Part shown: positions 1 through 5,320 of the stretch, piece by piece
Position numbering within the stretch: the stretch's first letter is position 1
Layout of the letters: each line of letters opens with the position of its first letter
Assembly (NCBI GenBank): GCA_028819775.1
Contig: JAPPKV010000500.1
Coordinates: forward strand, 1 to 5,320
DNA length: 5,320 nucleotides
From: Gammaproteobacteria bacterium
GTDB taxonomy: Bacteria > Pseudomonadota > Gammaproteobacteria > Pseudomonadales > Azotimanducaceae_A
Reading direction: 5' to 3'
Program-made: the position numbers and the translations under genes
The notes under the pieces: generated by a model
Database searches by the model: none
What the model saw: only the letters and a program-made list of their open reading frames with translations
Told to the model about the DNA's origin: nothing

Positions 1-982
1 GGGTTAGGTCCGCGACCTTGACCGTGGGTGATCCATCGACGACGGGACCGCGGAACACGCCGCCCCGGGTGTGGGGATTCCGGAAGTAGAAACCGCCTTC
101 CACCTGCCGCTCGGCCCAGTTGCCAAATGCGTAGGCTTCGCTGCCGTTGTTGAGATCGATGCCGAAGTTGCCGAACAGCTTGAAGTCGCCGGAGATCCGG
201 GGTGCGCCCCAGATCTGCGCTGCGGGTCGCCGTACATCGGTATTGCCGGCGTCGATCAATCCCTGGGCATCGCCGCGCTGGGCGCTGCGGCTGGTCGGAT
301 CCGACTCTTTGAATTCGAAGCTCAGATTCGCGAAACCCAGATCCGTCAGGGGGAGGCCGACGTTGGCGGCGATGGTTATCGCATCGCCGTCGCCTTCGAC
401 GTGCCGGCCCCACTTGGCTTCCACCAACGTTCCCTGGGCGTCCTCCTTGAGCACGAAGTTCATTATCCCGGCGATGGCGTCGGACCCGTACTGGGCCGAT
501 GCGCCGTCGCGGAGCACCTCGAGGCGATCCAGGGCGATGGCCGGTATGGCCGACAGGTCGGGGCCTTGCGAACCGCCCGATATCCCGGCGCCGAGCAGCG
601 CGATGACGGCAGCCCGGTGACGGCGCTTGCCGTTCAGGAGAACCAGCGTGGCATCCGGGGGCAGCGACCGCAGCGTTGCCGGACGAATGAACGTCGCGGC
701 GTCGCTGATGGGCTCCTGGGCGACGTTATAGGACGGCACCAGCGCCGCGACCAGTTCGTCCATGTCGGTATTGCCGTGGGCGAGAAAATCGTCGCCGCCG
801 ATCACGTCGACGGGGACGGGCGAGTCGGATGCCGATCGGTCGCGGCGTCGTGAACCGACGACCACCACCTCTTCGATCGGGCCGGAAGATGCTTGCTCAC
901 CGGATTCCTCGGCGATTGCCGGTTCGTTTGTGATGGCAAGCGATGCAAGTGCGATCGGTACTGCTATAGCAAACGATTTCAA
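1..982 (-). CDS. TonB-dependent outer-membrane receptor, N-terminal part (runs off the left edge)
   Basis: This gene encodes an outer-membrane receptor that would import a bound ligand (iron chelate, vitamin or other nutrient) using TonB energy. The ligand cannot be read from this part. The 327 visible residues start with a signal peptide (about 1-24, ending PAIA before EES). A TonB-box-like stretch follows (IEEVVVVGSRR, 36-46), then the plug domain with LVLLNGKRR (113-121) and the hallmark LEVLRDGASAQYGSDAIAG (154-172). The first barrel strands come after residue 176, and the rest of the barrel lies outside the window. I chose the TTG start at 982 because GGAG (990-993) lies 7 bases upstream and the signal peptide begins directly with it; no better ATG is in frame. 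A TATAAT box upstream suggests its own promoter. The family call is firm from the plug motifs; the substrate is unknown. Confidence 0.93.
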   Translation of the reverse strand, partial: MKSFAIAVPIALASLAITNEPAIAEESGEQASSGPIEEVVVVGSRRRDRSASDSPVPVDVIGGDDFLAHGNTDMDELVAALVPSYNVAQEPISDAATFIRPATLRSLPPDATLVLLNGKRRHRAAVIALLGAGISGGSQGPDLSAIPAIALDRLEVLRDGASAQYGSDAIAGIMNFVLKEDAQGTLVEAKWGRHVEGDGDAITIAANVGLPLTDLGFANLSFEFKESDPTSRSAQRGDAQGLIDAGNTDVRRPAAQIWGAPRISGDFKLFGNFGIDLNNGSEAYAFGNWAERQVEGGFYFRNPHTRGGVFRGPVVDGSPTVKVADLT

Positions 983-1100: not shown

Positions 1101-1685
1101 CTAGATATGGTCGCGAATCCTTGCGGCCATGGCGACATGGTCGGCCGCCCCGGGTAGATAGTCGACGATCCGGCTGAACGGATCGACGATGTAGACGATC
1201 GTCGAATGGTTGATCTGGTGGTCTGGCGTCGTGTCGCCCGAGAACTCCTCGAACAAGGTCTTGAAGGAATCGGCCGCGCCCTTGAGGGCTGCGCGGGAGC
1301 CCGTTAGGCCGACGAAGCGCTCGTCGAAATACTCGAGGTAGGCAGCGACCTTTTCCGGCGTGTCGCGCTCCGGGTCGACGGAGATGAACACCGGCGAAAT
1401 ACGCGTTCCATGACCGGTCCGGTCGAGTTCCGCCATCACTTGGGTGAGTTTGTTCATCTGTGTGGGGCAGATCATATGGCAGTTCGTGAAACCGAAGAAC
1501 ACCATGAGGTGTCGACCGCCGAGGTCCGTCGCCGTCAGGGTCTCCTGCTCGTGGCTCACGAGCCGGAACTGTATCCGCGAACCGGTGTCCTCGTGCAGCC
1601 AGACTGCGAATGCGAACGAGGCGACGATCACGCCGAGGACGACGAGGAACAGGACCGCCGTCTTGGCGGCGGGAGAGACGGTCAC
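1101..1685 (-). CDS. SCO1/SenC/PrrC-family copper chaperone, membrane-anchored
   Basis: This is a periplasm-facing copper chaperone or thiol-disulfide protein of the family that assembles the CuA (or CuB) centre of heme-copper oxidoreductases. It has 194 residues. One N-terminal membrane helix (about 9-30, AVLFLVVLGVIVASFAFAV) anchors a thioredoxin-like domain. The copper motif is CHMIC (C69 and C73, in GFTNCHMICP), and the distal His is H160 in DHQINHSTIVYIVDP. SVDPERDTPE (102-111) is typical of the family, and all three copper ligands are present. The GTG start at 1685 is supported by GGAG five bases upstream and by the GTGA overlap with the TGA of the FNT gene, which implies translational coupling. 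It ends with TAG. A second SCO gene lies at 4357 on the other strand. The two may serve different steps of the same oxidoreductase, or this one may serve another oxidase; that is inference. Confidence 0.93.
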   Translation of the reverse strand: MTVSPAAKTAVLFLVVLGVIVASFAFAVWLHEDTGSRIQFRLVSHEQETLTATDLGGRHLMVFFGFTNCHMICPTQMNKLTQVMAELDRTGHGTRISPVFISVDPERDTPEKVAAYLEYFDERFVGLTGSRAALKGAADSFKTLFEEFSGDTTPDHQINHSTIVYIVDPFSRIVDYLPGAADHVAMAARIRDHI

Positions 1686-2215
1686 GAAGGCTCCGACCGA
1701 TGCGGAGCGGTCTCGCCGGTTGCCGTGTCTTGATCCGCTTTGGACCATGCGAAGCGACCATGGGTTGCAACCCAGTAGCCGAACCCCATGAACAGGCTGC
1801 CGCCGATGATGTTGCCGACCGTCACCCAGAGGAGGTTGTGGGCCATGCCGCCGACACTGATCGTATCCGGATGGTCGGTGAGCAGCGGGATCGAGAGGAG
1901 GGTCATGTTGGCGACGCTGTGCTCGAAGCCGCTGGCGATGAATGCGAACAGGCACCAGAAGATCACGATCGCCTTCGTTGCGTCGCTCTTGGTCCGCGCG
2001 GACATCCACAACGCCAGGCACACCAGCCAGTTGCAGAGCGTCGCGCGCGCGATCAAGGCGGGTATCGAGGAGTTCATCTTGAAGTCCGCGATCTTGAACA
2101 GGAACGGCGCACCTTCCGACAGCAGCCCGCCCCCCCCACCGGCAACGAAGAGCGCCGCCAAGCCGACCGAACCGACCAGGTTGAAGATCCACGACGCGAC
2201 CCAGACTTTCTTCAA
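1682..2215 (-). CDS. nirC: FNT-family formate/nitrite channel (NirC-like), N-terminally truncated
   Basis: FNT proteins are pentameric inner-membrane channels for nitrite, formate or related anions, normally about 250-280 residues with six helices. Here 177 residues correspond to the last two thirds: helix 3 (about 4-25), the conserved LCNWLVCLALWM (60-71), helix 5 with ASGFEHSVANM (94-104, containing the family's pore histidine H99) and helix 6 with HNLLWVTVGNIIGG (126-139). These strings resemble E. coli NirC closely. Helices 1 and 2, about 100 residues, are missing. The frame stays open upstream to about 2335 but that sequence is not FNT-like, and the next ~100 codons would collide with the oppositely oriented subunit II gene. 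The only start is TTG at 2215, with GAGG four bases upstream. It overlaps the SCO gene by four bases. It is probably a broken remnant unless the short form pairs with another protein. A run of eight C (2130-2137) encodes a Gly-rich loop without disturbing the frame. Confidence 0.8.
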   Translation of the reverse strand: MKKVWVASWIFNLVGSVGLAALFVAGGGGGLLSEGAPFLFKIADFKMNSSIPALIARATLCNWLVCLALWMSARTKSDATKAIVIFWCLFAFIASGFEHSVANMTLLSIPLLTDHPDTISVGGMAHNLLWVTVGNIIGGSLFMGFGYWVATHGRFAWSKADQDTATGETAPHRSEPS

Positions 2216-2358: not shown

Positions 2359-2891
2359 ATGATCCAAGACACGGTGTTCGTGGTGACCGTTGTTCTCATG
2401 CTGGTGGTCGCGGGTGCGTTCGCATTCGTGGCGCTGGGCGCCAGCAAATCCACGGCGGAATACCCGCCGATCCAACAGAAGTCCCAGGGCCTGCGCGTTG
2501 GTTCTTCTGGCTGCTGATCGTTGCGGGTGTGTTGATCGCGGTCATCACCATGCTCGATCTGCCCTACGCGGCGACGCGGGGGGATGCGCCCGACGACGCC
2601 GTCACGGTGGATGTCGAGGGCAAGCAATGGTTCTGGGAGTTGGGCAGCGCCGAATACAAGGCGGGGACCACCGTGGTCTTCAACGTCACGTCCGGCGATG
2701 TGAATCACGGTCTCGGCGCCTACGACCCGGCGATGCGGATGATCGGGCAGACCCAGGCGATGCCGGGCTACGTCAACGTGTTGGCGGTCAAACTCGATAG
2801 CCCGGGTACGTACAAGCTGCTCTGCATGGAGTACTGCGGCCTCGTCCACCACGCGATGGTGAGCGAGTTCACGGTCGGCGAAGGCGGGTAA
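2359..2891 (+). CDS. Heme-copper oxidoreductase subunit II with CuA site (probable sNOR subunit), frameshifted
   Basis: This is the electron-entry subunit. Its CuA cupredoxin domain takes electrons, probably from a cytochrome c, and passes them to subunit I. As read, the first frame (from 2359) stops at TGA 2515-2517 after 52 codons. The homologous frame resumes at 2496, so one base seems missing near 2491-2498 (LR then RWFFWLL). The repaired protein has 177 residues. Helix 1 is about 6-28, helix 2 about 48-66 and the CuA domain about 75-177. The CuA set is complete: H117 in DVNHG, then C156, E158, C160, H164 and M167 in CMEYCGLVHHAM. Spacing C+2, +4, +8, +11 equals that of classical subunit II. 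The short N-terminal part and compact domain are of the ba3/NOR-like kind. It precedes subunit I by 25 bases. The identity is secure; the NO-reductase assignment rests on subunit I and gene order. Confidence 0.88.
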
Positions 2892-2904
2892 CGCGAAGAC
2901 GAAC

Positions 2905-2910
2905 AGGAGA
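2905..2910 (+). promoter_or_regulatory. Ribosome binding site of subunit I
   Basis: AGGAGA, six bases before the ATG at 2917, in the 25-base gap after the subunit II stop. It is strong and well spaced, so subunit I has its own translation signal. Confidence 0.6.
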
Positions 2911-2916
2911 ACTCCG

Positions 2917-4014
2917 ATGGCTGAACAAACCGCTGCACCGCTGCCGTCGTCCGGCCGGCTGGGCGTGATCGTCTACCTAGGGATCAGTGCCCTGGTTTTC
3001 GTGCTCATGATGGTTCTGGGCCTGCTCATGCGCCTCTCCCAGGCGACTTGGCAGGAACTGACGCCCAACCTCTTCTACGAAGTAATGACCGCCCATGGCG
3101 CCGGCATGGTCGGCATATCCGGGCTCGCGGCCAGCGGCGTGATCTGGTACTTCCTGCGCCGCTACGTCGACCTGTCCGTGGGTATCCTGTGGACGAACCT
3201 GGCGTTCTTCCTGCTTGGGGTCGTCCTCATTCTCGGCGGCATCTTCCTGGGGAACTACGCCGGTGGCTGGACCTTCCTGTTCCCGCTGCCCGGCACGAGC
3301 GCGGGGGTGTGGGGACCGGCGGGTGCTGCCTCGTACCTCTTTGGACTGTTGTCGATCGGTGTCGGGTTCCTGTTGCTCTACCTGGACTTCGCCAGGGCGA
3401 TCATGGCGAGGTACGGTTCGCTCGCCAAGGCGCTTGGCTGGCCGCAGCTTTTCCGCAACAGCGACGACGAGGCGCCGCCGCCGACGGTCGTCGCCGCGAC
3501 CATGGTATTGATCGTCAATATCGCCGGCATCCTCTCCGGTGCCGTCGTGCTGGCGCTGATACTCGTCAACCTGTTCGCACCGCAATTCGCGGTGGATGCG
3601 TTGCTGACCAAGAACCTGACGTACTTCTTCGGGCACGTATTCATCAACGCCACGATCTACCAAGCGCTGGTGGCCGTCTACGAGATCCTGCCGAAGTACG
3701 TGGGCAGATCCTGGCCGGTGAACCGGATTTTCCTCGCGGCATGGACCGCGACCACCGTCATGGTGATGGCGGTATACCCGCACCACCTGCTGATGGACTT
3801 CGTGATGCCCACCTGGGCATTGGCGCTCGGCCAGGTCGTCTCCTACCTGGCGGGACTGCCGGTCTTCGCCGTCACGGCCTGGACGACGCTCACCATCGTG
3901 TATCGCTCGGGCATCAAGTGGGATATGACGTCGGGACTCCTGTTCGTATCCATATTCGGCTGGAGCGCTGGGATCGTACCGGCCATCATCGACGGGGTCA
4001 TCGCGGTGAACTAG
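2917..4014 (+). CDS. Heme-copper oxidoreductase subunit I, N-terminal 365 residues up to an in-frame TAG (probable sNOR nitric oxide reductase)
   Basis: This is the catalytic membrane subunit carrying a low-spin heme and a binuclear heme-metal centre. Visible ligands are H60 (MTAHGAG, low-spin heme), H240 (FFGHVFINATIY, CuB) and H289-H290 (YPHHLLMDF, CuB). At H+4, where A- and B-family oxygen reductases have the tyrosine cross-linked to the CuB histidine, there is N244; tyrosines stand at 248 and 255. That loss, with the CuA partner and the following senC and small membrane gene, points to sNOR, a reductase of 2 NO to N2O. GGWTFLFPLPG (116-126) is the loop seen in many subunit I proteins. The frame meets TAG at 4012-4014 and resumes at once with VMHNTMWVPGHFH. 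A product ending here lacks both remaining heme ligands and should be inactive. Reading through gives 479 positions, a normal length. A single C-to-T change from CAG (Gln) would explain it. Confidence 0.88.
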   Translation: MAEQTAAPLPSSGRLGVIVYLGISALVFVLMMVLGLLMRLSQATWQELTPNLFYEVMTAHGAGMVGISGLAASGVIWYFLRRYVDLSVGILWTNLAFFLLGVVLILGGIFLGNYAGGWTFLFPLPGTSAGVWGPAGAASYLFGLLSIGVGFLLLYLDFARAIMARYGSLAKALGWPQLFRNSDDEAPPPTVVAATMVLIVNIAGILSGAVVLALILVNLFAPQFAVDALLTKNLTYFFGHVFINATIYQALVAVYEILPKYVGRSWPVNRIFLAAWTATTVMVMAVYPHHLLMDFVMPTWALALGQVVSYLAGLPVFAVTAWTTLTIVYRSGIKWDMTSGLLFVSIFGWSAGIVPAIIDGVIAVN

Positions 4015-4356
4015 GTGATGCACAACACCATGTGGGTACCCGGCCACTTCCACATGTACCTGGTGCTCGGCCTGGTGGCCATGTTGTTCGGCTTCATGTA
4101 CTACCTATCCGATCAGGGATCGCGAAAAGGCGTCGATGTCGTCGCGTTCTGGCTGTATCTCCTCGCCGGCACGGGTTTCTCGGTGGGGCTCCTGGCAAGC
4201 GGGCTCGGTTCGGTGCCGCGGCGTTGGGCGGTGCATCTGCCGGAGTGGGTGGCTGATAGCCAGGCATCCTCGGTATTCGCGGCCGTGATAGCCCTAGCGG
4301 CGCTGGTCTTCGCCGTGCGTTTCCTGACGAGCCTTAGACACGCCCGGGCCGGCTGA
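4015..4356 (+). CDS. Heme-copper oxidoreductase subunit I, C-terminal 113 residues after the in-frame TAG
   Basis: This is the continuation of subunit I in the same frame. It opens with VMHNTMWVPGHFHMYLVLG, in which H377 (high-spin heme) and H379 (low-spin heme) are numbered on the read-through protein. The distance from the HH pair (289-290) to HFH (377-379) is close to that in bovine subunit I, so nothing else is missing. Three further membrane segments follow and the gene ends with TGA at 4354-4356. GTG (4015) and ATG (4018) stand directly after the TAG, so reinitiation could in principle make this piece separately, but I see no convincing ribosome binding site and know no heme-copper enzyme split here. 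I treat it as part of one gene interrupted by a nonsense codon or a base-call error. The next gene begins on the very next base. Confidence 0.85.
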   Translation: MMHNTMWVPGHFHMYLVLGLVAMLFGFMYYLSDQGSRKGVDVVAFWLYLLAGTGFSVGLLASGLGSVPRRWAVHLPEWVADSQASSVFAAVIALAALVFAVRFLTSLRHARAG

Positions 4357-4965
4357 ATGCCTTGGCGGTCGGCGTGCGCCGCCGTCCTCGTCCTGGGGTT
4401 GGGTTGCGCCGCGCTGATCCTCGGCACCGACGGCGGGTCCATTTGGACCGCCGAAGGTGCCCGTCGCCAGGCGGTGCTTTCGAACCCCAAGCCGCTAGCG
4501 GACTATCCGCTTAGGGATTCCCTCGGCACCCGGCTTTCCCTCGCCAATCCCGGGCGTGAGCTGCAGGTCATCGACCTGATCTACACGCGTTGCCCGACGG
4601 TTTGCCTTGCCATGGGCGCACAGCTTCGCATGCTGCAAACCGAACTCGCGGCCGTCGGTCTGCTCGAACAGGTGGGGATACTCAGCATCACGTTCGATCC
4701 GGCCGATGACGAACGTGCGCTCGCGGACTACTTGGCGCGGTTTCACGCCATCGAACCCGGTTGGCGGGCCGCCCGGTTCGAAAACGACGAAGATCTCGCC
4801 CGTACGCTCGACGAACTCGGCGTCGTCGTGCTCCCCGACCCGAGCGTCGGCTTCGTCCACAACGCCGCGTTCTACCTGGTCGAGCAGGGGCGTGTCGTTG
4901 CGGTCCTGGATGTCGAGGACCGCGCCGGCCTGTTCGAGGCCATCCGCAAACGGACAGGGGCATGA
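4357..4965 (+). CDS. senC: SenC/SCO-family copper chaperone of the reductase operon
   Basis: This protein would deliver copper to, or reduce the thiols of, the CuA site of the adjacent subunit II (C156/C160). It has 202 residues: an N-terminal membrane anchor (about 8-24), then the SCO thioredoxin-like domain. The copper motif is CPTVC (C79 and C83, in IYTRCPTVCLAMG) and the distal His is H168 in GFVHNAAFYLV. SITFDPADD (110-118) matches the family's usual SVDP-type strand. The N-terminal GLGC is a poor lipobox, so I favour an uncleaved anchor over a lipoprotein. The ATG directly follows the TGA of subunit I, with no clear ribosome binding site, so translation is probably coupled. The stop overlaps the next start by four bases (ATGA). 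Its place between subunit I and a small membrane protein matches norSY-senC-orf1. It is only distantly similar to the SCO protein at 1101-1685. Confidence 0.93.
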   Translation: MPWRSACAAVLVLGLGCAALILGTDGGSIWTAEGARRQAVLSNPKPLADYPLRDSLGTRLSLANPGRELQVIDLIYTRCPTVCLAMGAQLRMLQTELAAVGLLEQVGILSITFDPADDERALADYLARFHAIEPGWRAARFENDEDLARTLDELGVVVLPDPSVGFVHNAAFYLVEQGRVVAVLDVEDRAGLFEAIRKRTGA

Positions 4966-5320
4966 GCGCACTTGCCGGTTGGATAGAGGGCCGGATGCTC
5001 ATCGCGGTCGGGGTCCTGCTCGCGATCATCGCGACGCCGTTGGGGTCGACGCTGGCATCGACGATGGTCGGCCATGTACTGATCCAGATCCCACTGCTCG
5101 GCGCAGCGGGGTTCGTGCTCGGCAAGAGCCTCGAGCCGAAGATCGAAGCCACCCTTCGAACCTGGAACGCCGGCGGCATCCCGGGGATCCTGCTGGCAAG
5201 TCTCGCGATCGCGTTCTGGATGATTCCGAGGTGGCTGGACGGTGCCGTGACCAGCACGGCCGTAGACATGGCGAAGTACGGATCCGTGGTGCTGCTAGCC
5301 GGGGTCCCGCTCGGCTGGAG
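4962..5320 (+). CDS. Small multi-helix membrane protein following senC (runs off the right edge)
   Basis: I do not recognise a named family. The 119 visible codons begin MSALAGWIEGRM and contain hydrophobic segments at about 12-31, 35-54, 72-90 and 104 to the edge, so it is an integral inner-membrane protein. A histidine (H38) lies in GHVLIQIPLLGAAG within the second segment. This recalls oxidase-assembly membrane proteins of the CtaG kind, but only loosely. The ATG overlaps the senC stop (ATGA), implying coupled translation and a shared task. In the norSY-senC-orf1 operon the fourth gene is also an uncharacterised membrane protein, so this is probably its counterpart, perhaps for assembly or copper handling (inference). 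No stop occurs before the window ends, so the full length is unknown. Confidence 0.82.
   Translation, partial: MSALAGWIEGRMLIAVGVLLAIIATPLGSTLASTMVGHVLIQIPLLGAAGFVLGKSLEPKIEATLRTWNAGGIPGILLASLAIAFWMIPRWLDGAVTSTAVDMAKYGSVVLLAGVPLGW

What the first reader, a model, noticed from the sequence alone, without database searches (positions are those of the whole stretch)
2359..5320. CuA subunit II, subunit I, senC and small membrane gene form a probable sNOR (norSY-senC-orf1) operon
Gene order and tight spacing (25, 0 and -4 bases) match the sNOR operon described in Nitrosomonas and Nitrosococcus. Subunit II has a full CuA set and subunit I has all six metal-binding histidines but no canonical active-site tyrosine. 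Routine annotation would call these genes cytochrome c oxidase. If correct, this host detoxifies or respires NO with an uncommon, little-studied reductase. I do not assign which gene is norS or norY.
Basis: partly seen in the sequence, partly recalled or inferred. Interest (0 to 1): 0.75.

Follow-up and report, generated by a model that had tools for sequence, protein, structure and literature searches.

The report
Broken sNOR nitric oxide reductase operon
This stretch carries the gene set of a little-studied enzyme thought to reduce nitric oxide, usually mislabelled as a cytochrome oxidase, but in this record two of its genes and a neighbouring one are damaged, so this copy probably no longer works.

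Summary
The operon call is right; the claim about the host is not. Subunit II (CuA), subunit I, senC and orf1 have the stated order and spacings. Subunit I has all six metal-binding histidines and Asn where oxygen reductases have Tyr (H+4). It falls in the sNOR clade with Nitrosomonas eutropha, apart from A, ba3, cbb3, bNOR and cNOR rows. Relatives keep the operon: CuA upstream 57 of 58, SCO/SenC downstream 59 of 61, orf1 58 of 60, formate/nitrite transporter nearby 30 of 46.

This copy is disabled as read: norS (CuA subunit) is split between two frames near 2498, norY (subunit I) has an in-frame TAG at codon 366, and the neighbouring transporter lacks its first half. A 98%-identical sister has two large deletions in the same operon, and another relative a different TAG in norY; the other 63 of 65 full-length relatives are open in norY. 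Both sister genomes keep a cNOR and an aa3 oxidase. Lesions look recent (norY dN/dS 0.024). Sequencing error for the two small lesions is not excluded. Whether sNOR reduces NO or O2 in vivo remains open.

The parts
2359..2517 (+). norS (CuA subunit II), N-terminal helix, frame 1, ends early
   Evidence: matches the start of the open L001 gene
2499..2891 (+). norS, second helix and CuA domain, frame 3; NHG and CMEYCGLVHHAM motif
   Evidence: (PF00116, E 4.4e-07)
2917..4356 (+). norY (heme-copper subunit I); H60, H240, H289, H290, H377, H379; Asn244 in place of Tyr
   Evidence: (PF00115, E 7.5e-49)
4012..4014 (+). in-frame TAG, norY codon 366 (Gln or His in the five relatives read)
4357..4965 (+). 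senC (SCO1/SenC copper chaperone), open, CPTVC and a later His
   Evidence: PF02630, E 3.7e-11
4962..5320 (+). orf1, multi-helix membrane protein, runs off the window; 206 aa in L046; weak DUF1404 likeness in relatives
1682..2215 (-). formate/nitrite transporter (FNT), C-terminal part only; 291 aa in L001
   Evidence: (PF01226 profile 99-240 of 240)
1101..1685 (-). second SCO1/SenC gene, open, ends in TAG
   Evidence: (E 8.8e-41)
2..982 (-). TonB-dependent receptor, 5' part in window; not part of the system

Best explanation
This is an sNOR operon (norS CuA subunit, norY heme-copper subunit, senC copper chaperone, orf1 membrane partner) of a gammaproteobacterium, probably a sponge symbiont, that has recently been disabled. 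In an intact copy (inferred from family and motifs) electrons from cytochrome c enter the CuA site of NorS, pass through the low-spin heme of NorY to its heme b3-CuB site, where Asn replaces the cross-linked Tyr and two NO are reduced to N2O; SenC supplies copper and orf1 assists assembly or forms a third subunit. In this record the transporter next door is truncated, norS is frame-shifted and norY has a premature stop after the CuB histidine pair (289, 290) and before the heme ligands H377 and H379, so ordinary translation cannot make a working enzyme. Loss would be tolerated because close relatives also encode a canonical cNOR. Shown: family, motifs, order, lesions in the record. Inferred: catalytic route, host, that the lesions are real and not technical.
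For: Family: (sNOR with its sister rows 100/100; sNOR alone 95/96). Operon conservation. Lesions. Other lesions in relatives: L046 deletions, L001 TAG at codon 408. 63 of 65 full-length relatives open in norY. Open near relatives exist (P0006, 97%). Redundancy: G001 and G002 each hold an aa3 subunit I and a NorB with HLWVE; norC beside it was looked at and found in G001 only. Recent: norY dN/dS 0.024 over 226 codons, window against L046.
Against: Strong purifying selection also fits an intact gene misread at two sites. No reads are available. P0006 at 97% shows that the near lineage can keep norY. No genome of the window is held, so cNOR redundancy is from sister genomes. No activity data here.
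Confidence: 0.66

Rival explanations
1. The operon is an intact, working sNOR; the frame shift in norS and the TAG in norY are sequencing or assembly errors.
For: Both are single-site lesions; norY and senC look constrained; P0006 at 97% is open.
Against: The transporter truncation is a structural change of about 330 bases against L001; L046 and L001 carry other lesions in the same operon, while the remaining 63 of 65 full-length relatives are open in norY.
Confidence: 0.28
2. The enzyme family is mainly a high-affinity O2 reductase that tolerates NO, not an NO reductase.
For: PMC6967387 (passages): sNOR genes 2.7- to 10.8-fold higher under O2 limitation in N. europaea, NorB glutamates lacking, heme-copper centre; no NirK or NirS hit passed its cut-off in 7 related genomes, so no own NO source was found.
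Against: Asn replaces the Tyr that all 16 A/ba3 reference rows have; no Tyr at the cbb3 place in 61 of 61 sNOR rows; bNOR, also Asn at H+4, is named as biochemically characterised (PMC11388526 passages); a formate/nitrite transporter lies near in 30 of 46 loci.
Confidence: 0.3
3. TAG is read through or means Gln in this lineage, so norY is functional.
For: Close relatives have Gln at codon 366 (P0006, P0007) and at 408 (P0007), where the window and L001 have TAG.
Against: Release factor 1 is present in both sister genomes; TAG ends 11 of 29 long open frames sampled from one and 8 of 21 from the other (frames not checked to be genes), and ends the upstream SCO gene in window and L046; CAG to TAG is one transition; P0009, P0012 and P0015 have His at 366 and P0006 has Val at 408; it would not explain the norS frame shift.
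Confidence: 0.03
4. Ordinary ba3-type or aa3-type cytochrome c oxidase operon.
For: Pfam COX1 and COX2 hits.
Against: Asn at H+4, tree placement, and curated oxidase models far below cut-off.
Confidence: 0.02

Closest known systems
sNOR of Nitrosomonas eutropha / N. europaea (norSY-senC-orf1)
   Same: Same gene order, H+4 Asn, same clade (L019, 58% identity); norSY-senC-orf1 listed in PMC3764937 (passage).
   Different: Window copy is interrupted in norS and norY; a truncated transporter and a second SCO gene lie divergently upstream. Ammonia-oxidation genes were not searched.
Type II 'qCuANOR' of Bacillus (BAZO_04705/04710)
   Same: CuA subunit with two N-terminal helices, shorter 12-helix subunit I, Asn for Tyr, linked SenC and small membrane protein (PMC3475470 passages). 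That this type is what later papers call sNOR is my inference from the Bacilli rows.
   Different: Bacilli rows L042 and L044 are 46-50% identical, and their SenC/orf1 were not found with my queries.
bNOR (CuANOR, Bacillus azotoformans)
   Same: CuA subunit II (PMC3475470 passages) and Asn at H+4 (L091, L096, labelled bNOR by me).
   Different: Longer subunit I (559-566 aa); groups with ba3 oxidases, not with norY.
ba3 (B-family) oxygen reductases
   Same: Best solved-structure sequence match is Thermus ba3; fold shared with heme-copper oxidases.
   Different: HPxVY with Tyr; separate clade.

Membership tests
sNOR | Six heme/copper histidines in subunit I | tested here: met
   (60 of 61 rows; the miss, L063, is masked at one place)
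sNOR | Asn in place of the active-site Tyr (PMC8756737 Table A4 passage) | tested here: met
   Asn244; Asn in 61 of 61 sNOR rows incl. window
sNOR | CuA cupredoxin subunit II directly upstream | tested here: met
   motif complete but split in two frames in this record
sNOR | norSY-senC-orf1 order | tested here: met
sNOR | Clade with Nitrosomonas sNOR, apart from other NOR and oxidase families | tested here: met
   family labels of references are mine; gNOR and nNOR references absent; one Gln-bearing row (L088) only
sNOR | Open reading frames able to make the enzyme | tested here: not met
   norS frame shift, norY TAG; membership by descent stands, a working enzyme does not
sNOR | NO reductase activity | not testable with these tools
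   needs an enzyme assay
sNOR | No proton channel (PMC8756737 Table A4 passage) | not tested
   channel residues were not examined
B-family (ba3) oxygen reductase | Cross-linking Tyr at H+4 and ba3 clade | tested here: not met
C-family (cbb3) oxygen reductase | Tyr on the next helix, H+44 (place recalled) | tested here: not met
   Val 59, Thr 2 of 61 sNOR rows; Tyr in 4 of 4 cbb3 rows
cNOR/qNOR | Glu at H+4 | tested here: not met

The most novel reading that the evidence does not exclude
sNOR may use a substitute redox tyrosine: Tyr248 (H+8 on the CuB helix, one turn past the Asn) is Tyr in 61 of 61 sNOR rows and 5 of 5 sister rows, in none of the A, ba3, bNOR and cbb3 rows used, and lies where the cNOR/qNOR rows have a Glu. 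If it can serve the active site, the Asn would not prove NO chemistry and sNOR could reduce O2 by a route unlike any known family. Against: the two bNOR rows also have a Tyr close by (H+7), and Tyr287 (58 of 61) is a second candidate, so conservation alone points to no role.
Probability: 0.07. Interest if true: 0.65.

Novelty: new member of a known kind. Interest (0 to 1): 0.33.

Why it matters
It adds a correctly named sNOR family member in a marine (probably sponge) lineage and warns that a gene label is not a function: in the three nearest DNA records, this one included, the operon carries different lesions, while the two sister genomes keep a cNOR. It also shows that orf1 is a near-constant, unnamed partner and that a formate/nitrite transporter is often linked, both usable leads for the unsettled question of what sNOR does.

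Tried and rejected

Rows dropped: six loci of the sister type (L062, L064-L068; five Gemmatimonadota, one ANGP1) left out of the counts; five of them have a CuA hit and none a SCO or orf1 hit. From: rows under 400 aa, L046, and L093, L094, L098 (same genes as L062, L054, L019); L099 was not extracted. From the tree: L072, L078, L079, L084 and all but 31 sNOR-type loci. From: also L073, L075, L081, L083, L087, L088, L097 and more sNOR rows. The trees warn of long branches that meet: cbb3 with the sNOR side and ba3/bNOR with A, so the order among families is unsure. The 63 open norY include five sister-type rows and three rows with masked bases.

Host habitat: searches listed no paper in which I saw these MAGs named; the RHO label is read as Rhopaloeides odorabile by inference from PMC8163846 (passages), which lists that sponge but does not contain 'RHO1' in its text.
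Full report
What is there. The window reads, from left: the 5' part of a TonB-dependent receptor gene (2-982, minus), an SCO1/SenC gene (1101-1685, minus), the C-terminal part of a formate/nitrite transporter (1682-2215, minus), then on the plus strand a CuA subunit II, a heme-copper subunit I (2917-4356), a second SCO1/SenC gene (4357-4965) and a membrane gene, orf1 (4962 to the window's end). No genome of the window is held.

All six histidines are present (H60, H240, H289, H290, H377, H379). Four residues after H240 lies Asn244. In 26 reference heme-copper subunits taken from six genomes, the residue is Tyr in 16 (14 A-type, 2 ba3), Gly in 4 cbb3, Glu in 3 cNOR/qNOR, Asn in 2 bNOR and Gln in 1. 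These family labels are mine, from motif and tree, not from a curated set. Asn is present in 61 of 61 sNOR rows, the window and P0006 included, and in 5 of 5 sister-type rows. Asn at this place for sNOR is what PMC8756737 Table A4 states, and for the Bacillus CuA enzymes PMC3475470 (passages seen of both).

Operon conservation. Of 70 loci found in species genomes, 64 were counted as sNOR. A CuA gene lies just upstream in 57 of 58 with room (the miss is L046), a SCO/SenC gene downstream in 59 of 61 and orf1 in 58 of 60 (misses: the two Bacilli, probably too diverged for my queries), and a formate/nitrite transporter hit (E up to 1e-3) lies within the locus in 30 of 46. By published usage norS is the CuA subunit and norY subunit I (PMC6967387 passages: norSY, previously coxB2A2; NorY compared with NorB). 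PMC3764937 (passage) lists norSY-senC-orf1 in N. europaea, N. eutropha and 'N. multiformis'.

This copy is damaged. norS starts at 2359 in frame 1 and stops at 2517; its CuA domain is in frame 3 to 2891; the frame changes near 2498 (open counterpart in L001). norY has TAG at codon 366, ahead of the heme ligands H377 and H379. The transporter has 177 aa here against 291 in L001 and matches only profile positions 99-240 of 240; about 330 bases are missing against L001.

Relatives. L046 (MAG RHO3_bin_63), 98% identical over 2.2 kb upstream, has lost everything from within the transporter to norY codon 31, and about 460 more bases inside norY. L001 (MAG RHO1_bin_53, 91% identical protein) has a different TAG, at norY codon 408. 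Of 65 full-length relatives these two are broken and 63 are open in norY; 5 more are cut by contig ends. The 63 include three further sponge-labelled MAGs by their names (L005, L006, L007; inference). Open near relatives exist as proteins, e.g. P0006 at 97% and P0007 at 94%; the protein collection favours open frames, so it cannot tell how common breakage is. Of 64 loci with a norS hit, two are cut by the contig's start (L015, L028) and two look interrupted: L019 (in-frame TGA) and L055 (frame shift in the CuA motif).

Recent loss or error. Between window and L046, norY shows 14 synonymous and 1 non-synonymous change over 226 codons (dN/dS 0.024; 0.106 over the last 68 codons); senC 0.113, orf1 0 (4 synonymous changes), the TonB gene 0.069, the transporter remnant 0.105, the upstream SCO gene 0.473. 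So constraint held until recently. This fits recent loss and also fits an intact gene misread at two sites; the structural lesions in the window and L046 and the separate TAG in L001 tip the balance towards real loss. TAG recoding is unlikely: release factor 1 is present in both sister genomes, TAG ends 11 of 29 and 8 of 21 long frames sampled there, and the upstream SCO gene ends in TAG in window and L046.

Why loss could be tolerated. The two sister genomes each have three PF00115 genes: an aa3-type subunit I (HPEVY), a NorB with HLWVE, and the sNOR gene or remnant. In G001 a norC-like gene with CxxCH lies next to norB; G002 was not looked at for that. So NO reduction by cNOR would remain. 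No NirK and no NirS hit passed its cut-off in any of 7 related genomes (weak hits in 2 of 7 each); the genomes may be incomplete.

What sNOR does. From motifs the expected route is cytochrome c to CuA to heme b to heme b3-CuB, with NO as substrate because the cross-linked Tyr is missing. But PMC6967387 (passages) finds sNOR genes raised 2.7- to 10.8-fold under O2 limitation in N. europaea, proposes a high-affinity oxidase and says that further work is needed. My data cannot decide. At the place of the cbb3 Tyr (H+44, recalled) sNOR has Val or Thr in 61 of 61 rows; of ten columns that are Tyr in all four cbb3 rows, sNOR is uniformly Tyr only at residue 255, which is Tyr in ba3 and bNOR too. Tyr248, at H+8, is Tyr in 61 of 61 and sits where cNOR/qNOR rows have Glu, a target for mutation rather than evidence.

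Verdict. Known kind, broken member. Papers were seen as search listings and passages only: PMC6967387, PMC3475470, PMC11388526, PMC8756737, PMC7285500, PMC12569097, PMC3764937, PMC5118430, PMC9999580, PMC8163846. In the listings of searches I saw no title on sNOR in sponge symbionts; search 47, for the words sNOR, sponge and symbiont, returned none.

Noticed in passing
L019:5352-5861: N. eutropha Nm57 norS has an in-frame TGA before the CuA domain, so sNOR may be damaged in this ammonia oxidiser draft too.
   Followed up: partly
L055:5344-5808: Roseovarius MAG norS changes frame inside the CuA motif.
   Followed up: partly
L062, L064-L067: Sister clade of sNOR in Gemmatimonadota (one ANGP1) MAGs: Asn at H+4 and a CuA gene, but no SCO or orf1 hit; may be another proposed NOR family.
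   Followed up: partly
window 4962-5320; L046:7493-8110: orf1 family has invariant G, W, P, D, C, Y, Q (RLCNxYLxxDQ region) and weakly matches DUF1404 in 21 of 38 members at E up to 1, best 1.4e-05; no named function.
   Followed up: partly
window 1682-2215 and related loci: A formate/nitrite transporter lies near sNOR in 30 of 46 loci, on either side and either strand.
   Followed up: yes
window 1101-1685: Upstream SCO gene shows raised dN/dS (0.473) against L046, unlike its neighbours; few changes, so weak.
   Followed up: no
NC_006569.1:196988-198223: sNOR-like subunit I on the Ruegeria pomeroyi megaplasmid record, 55.6% identity, so sNOR can be plasmid-borne.
   Followed up: no
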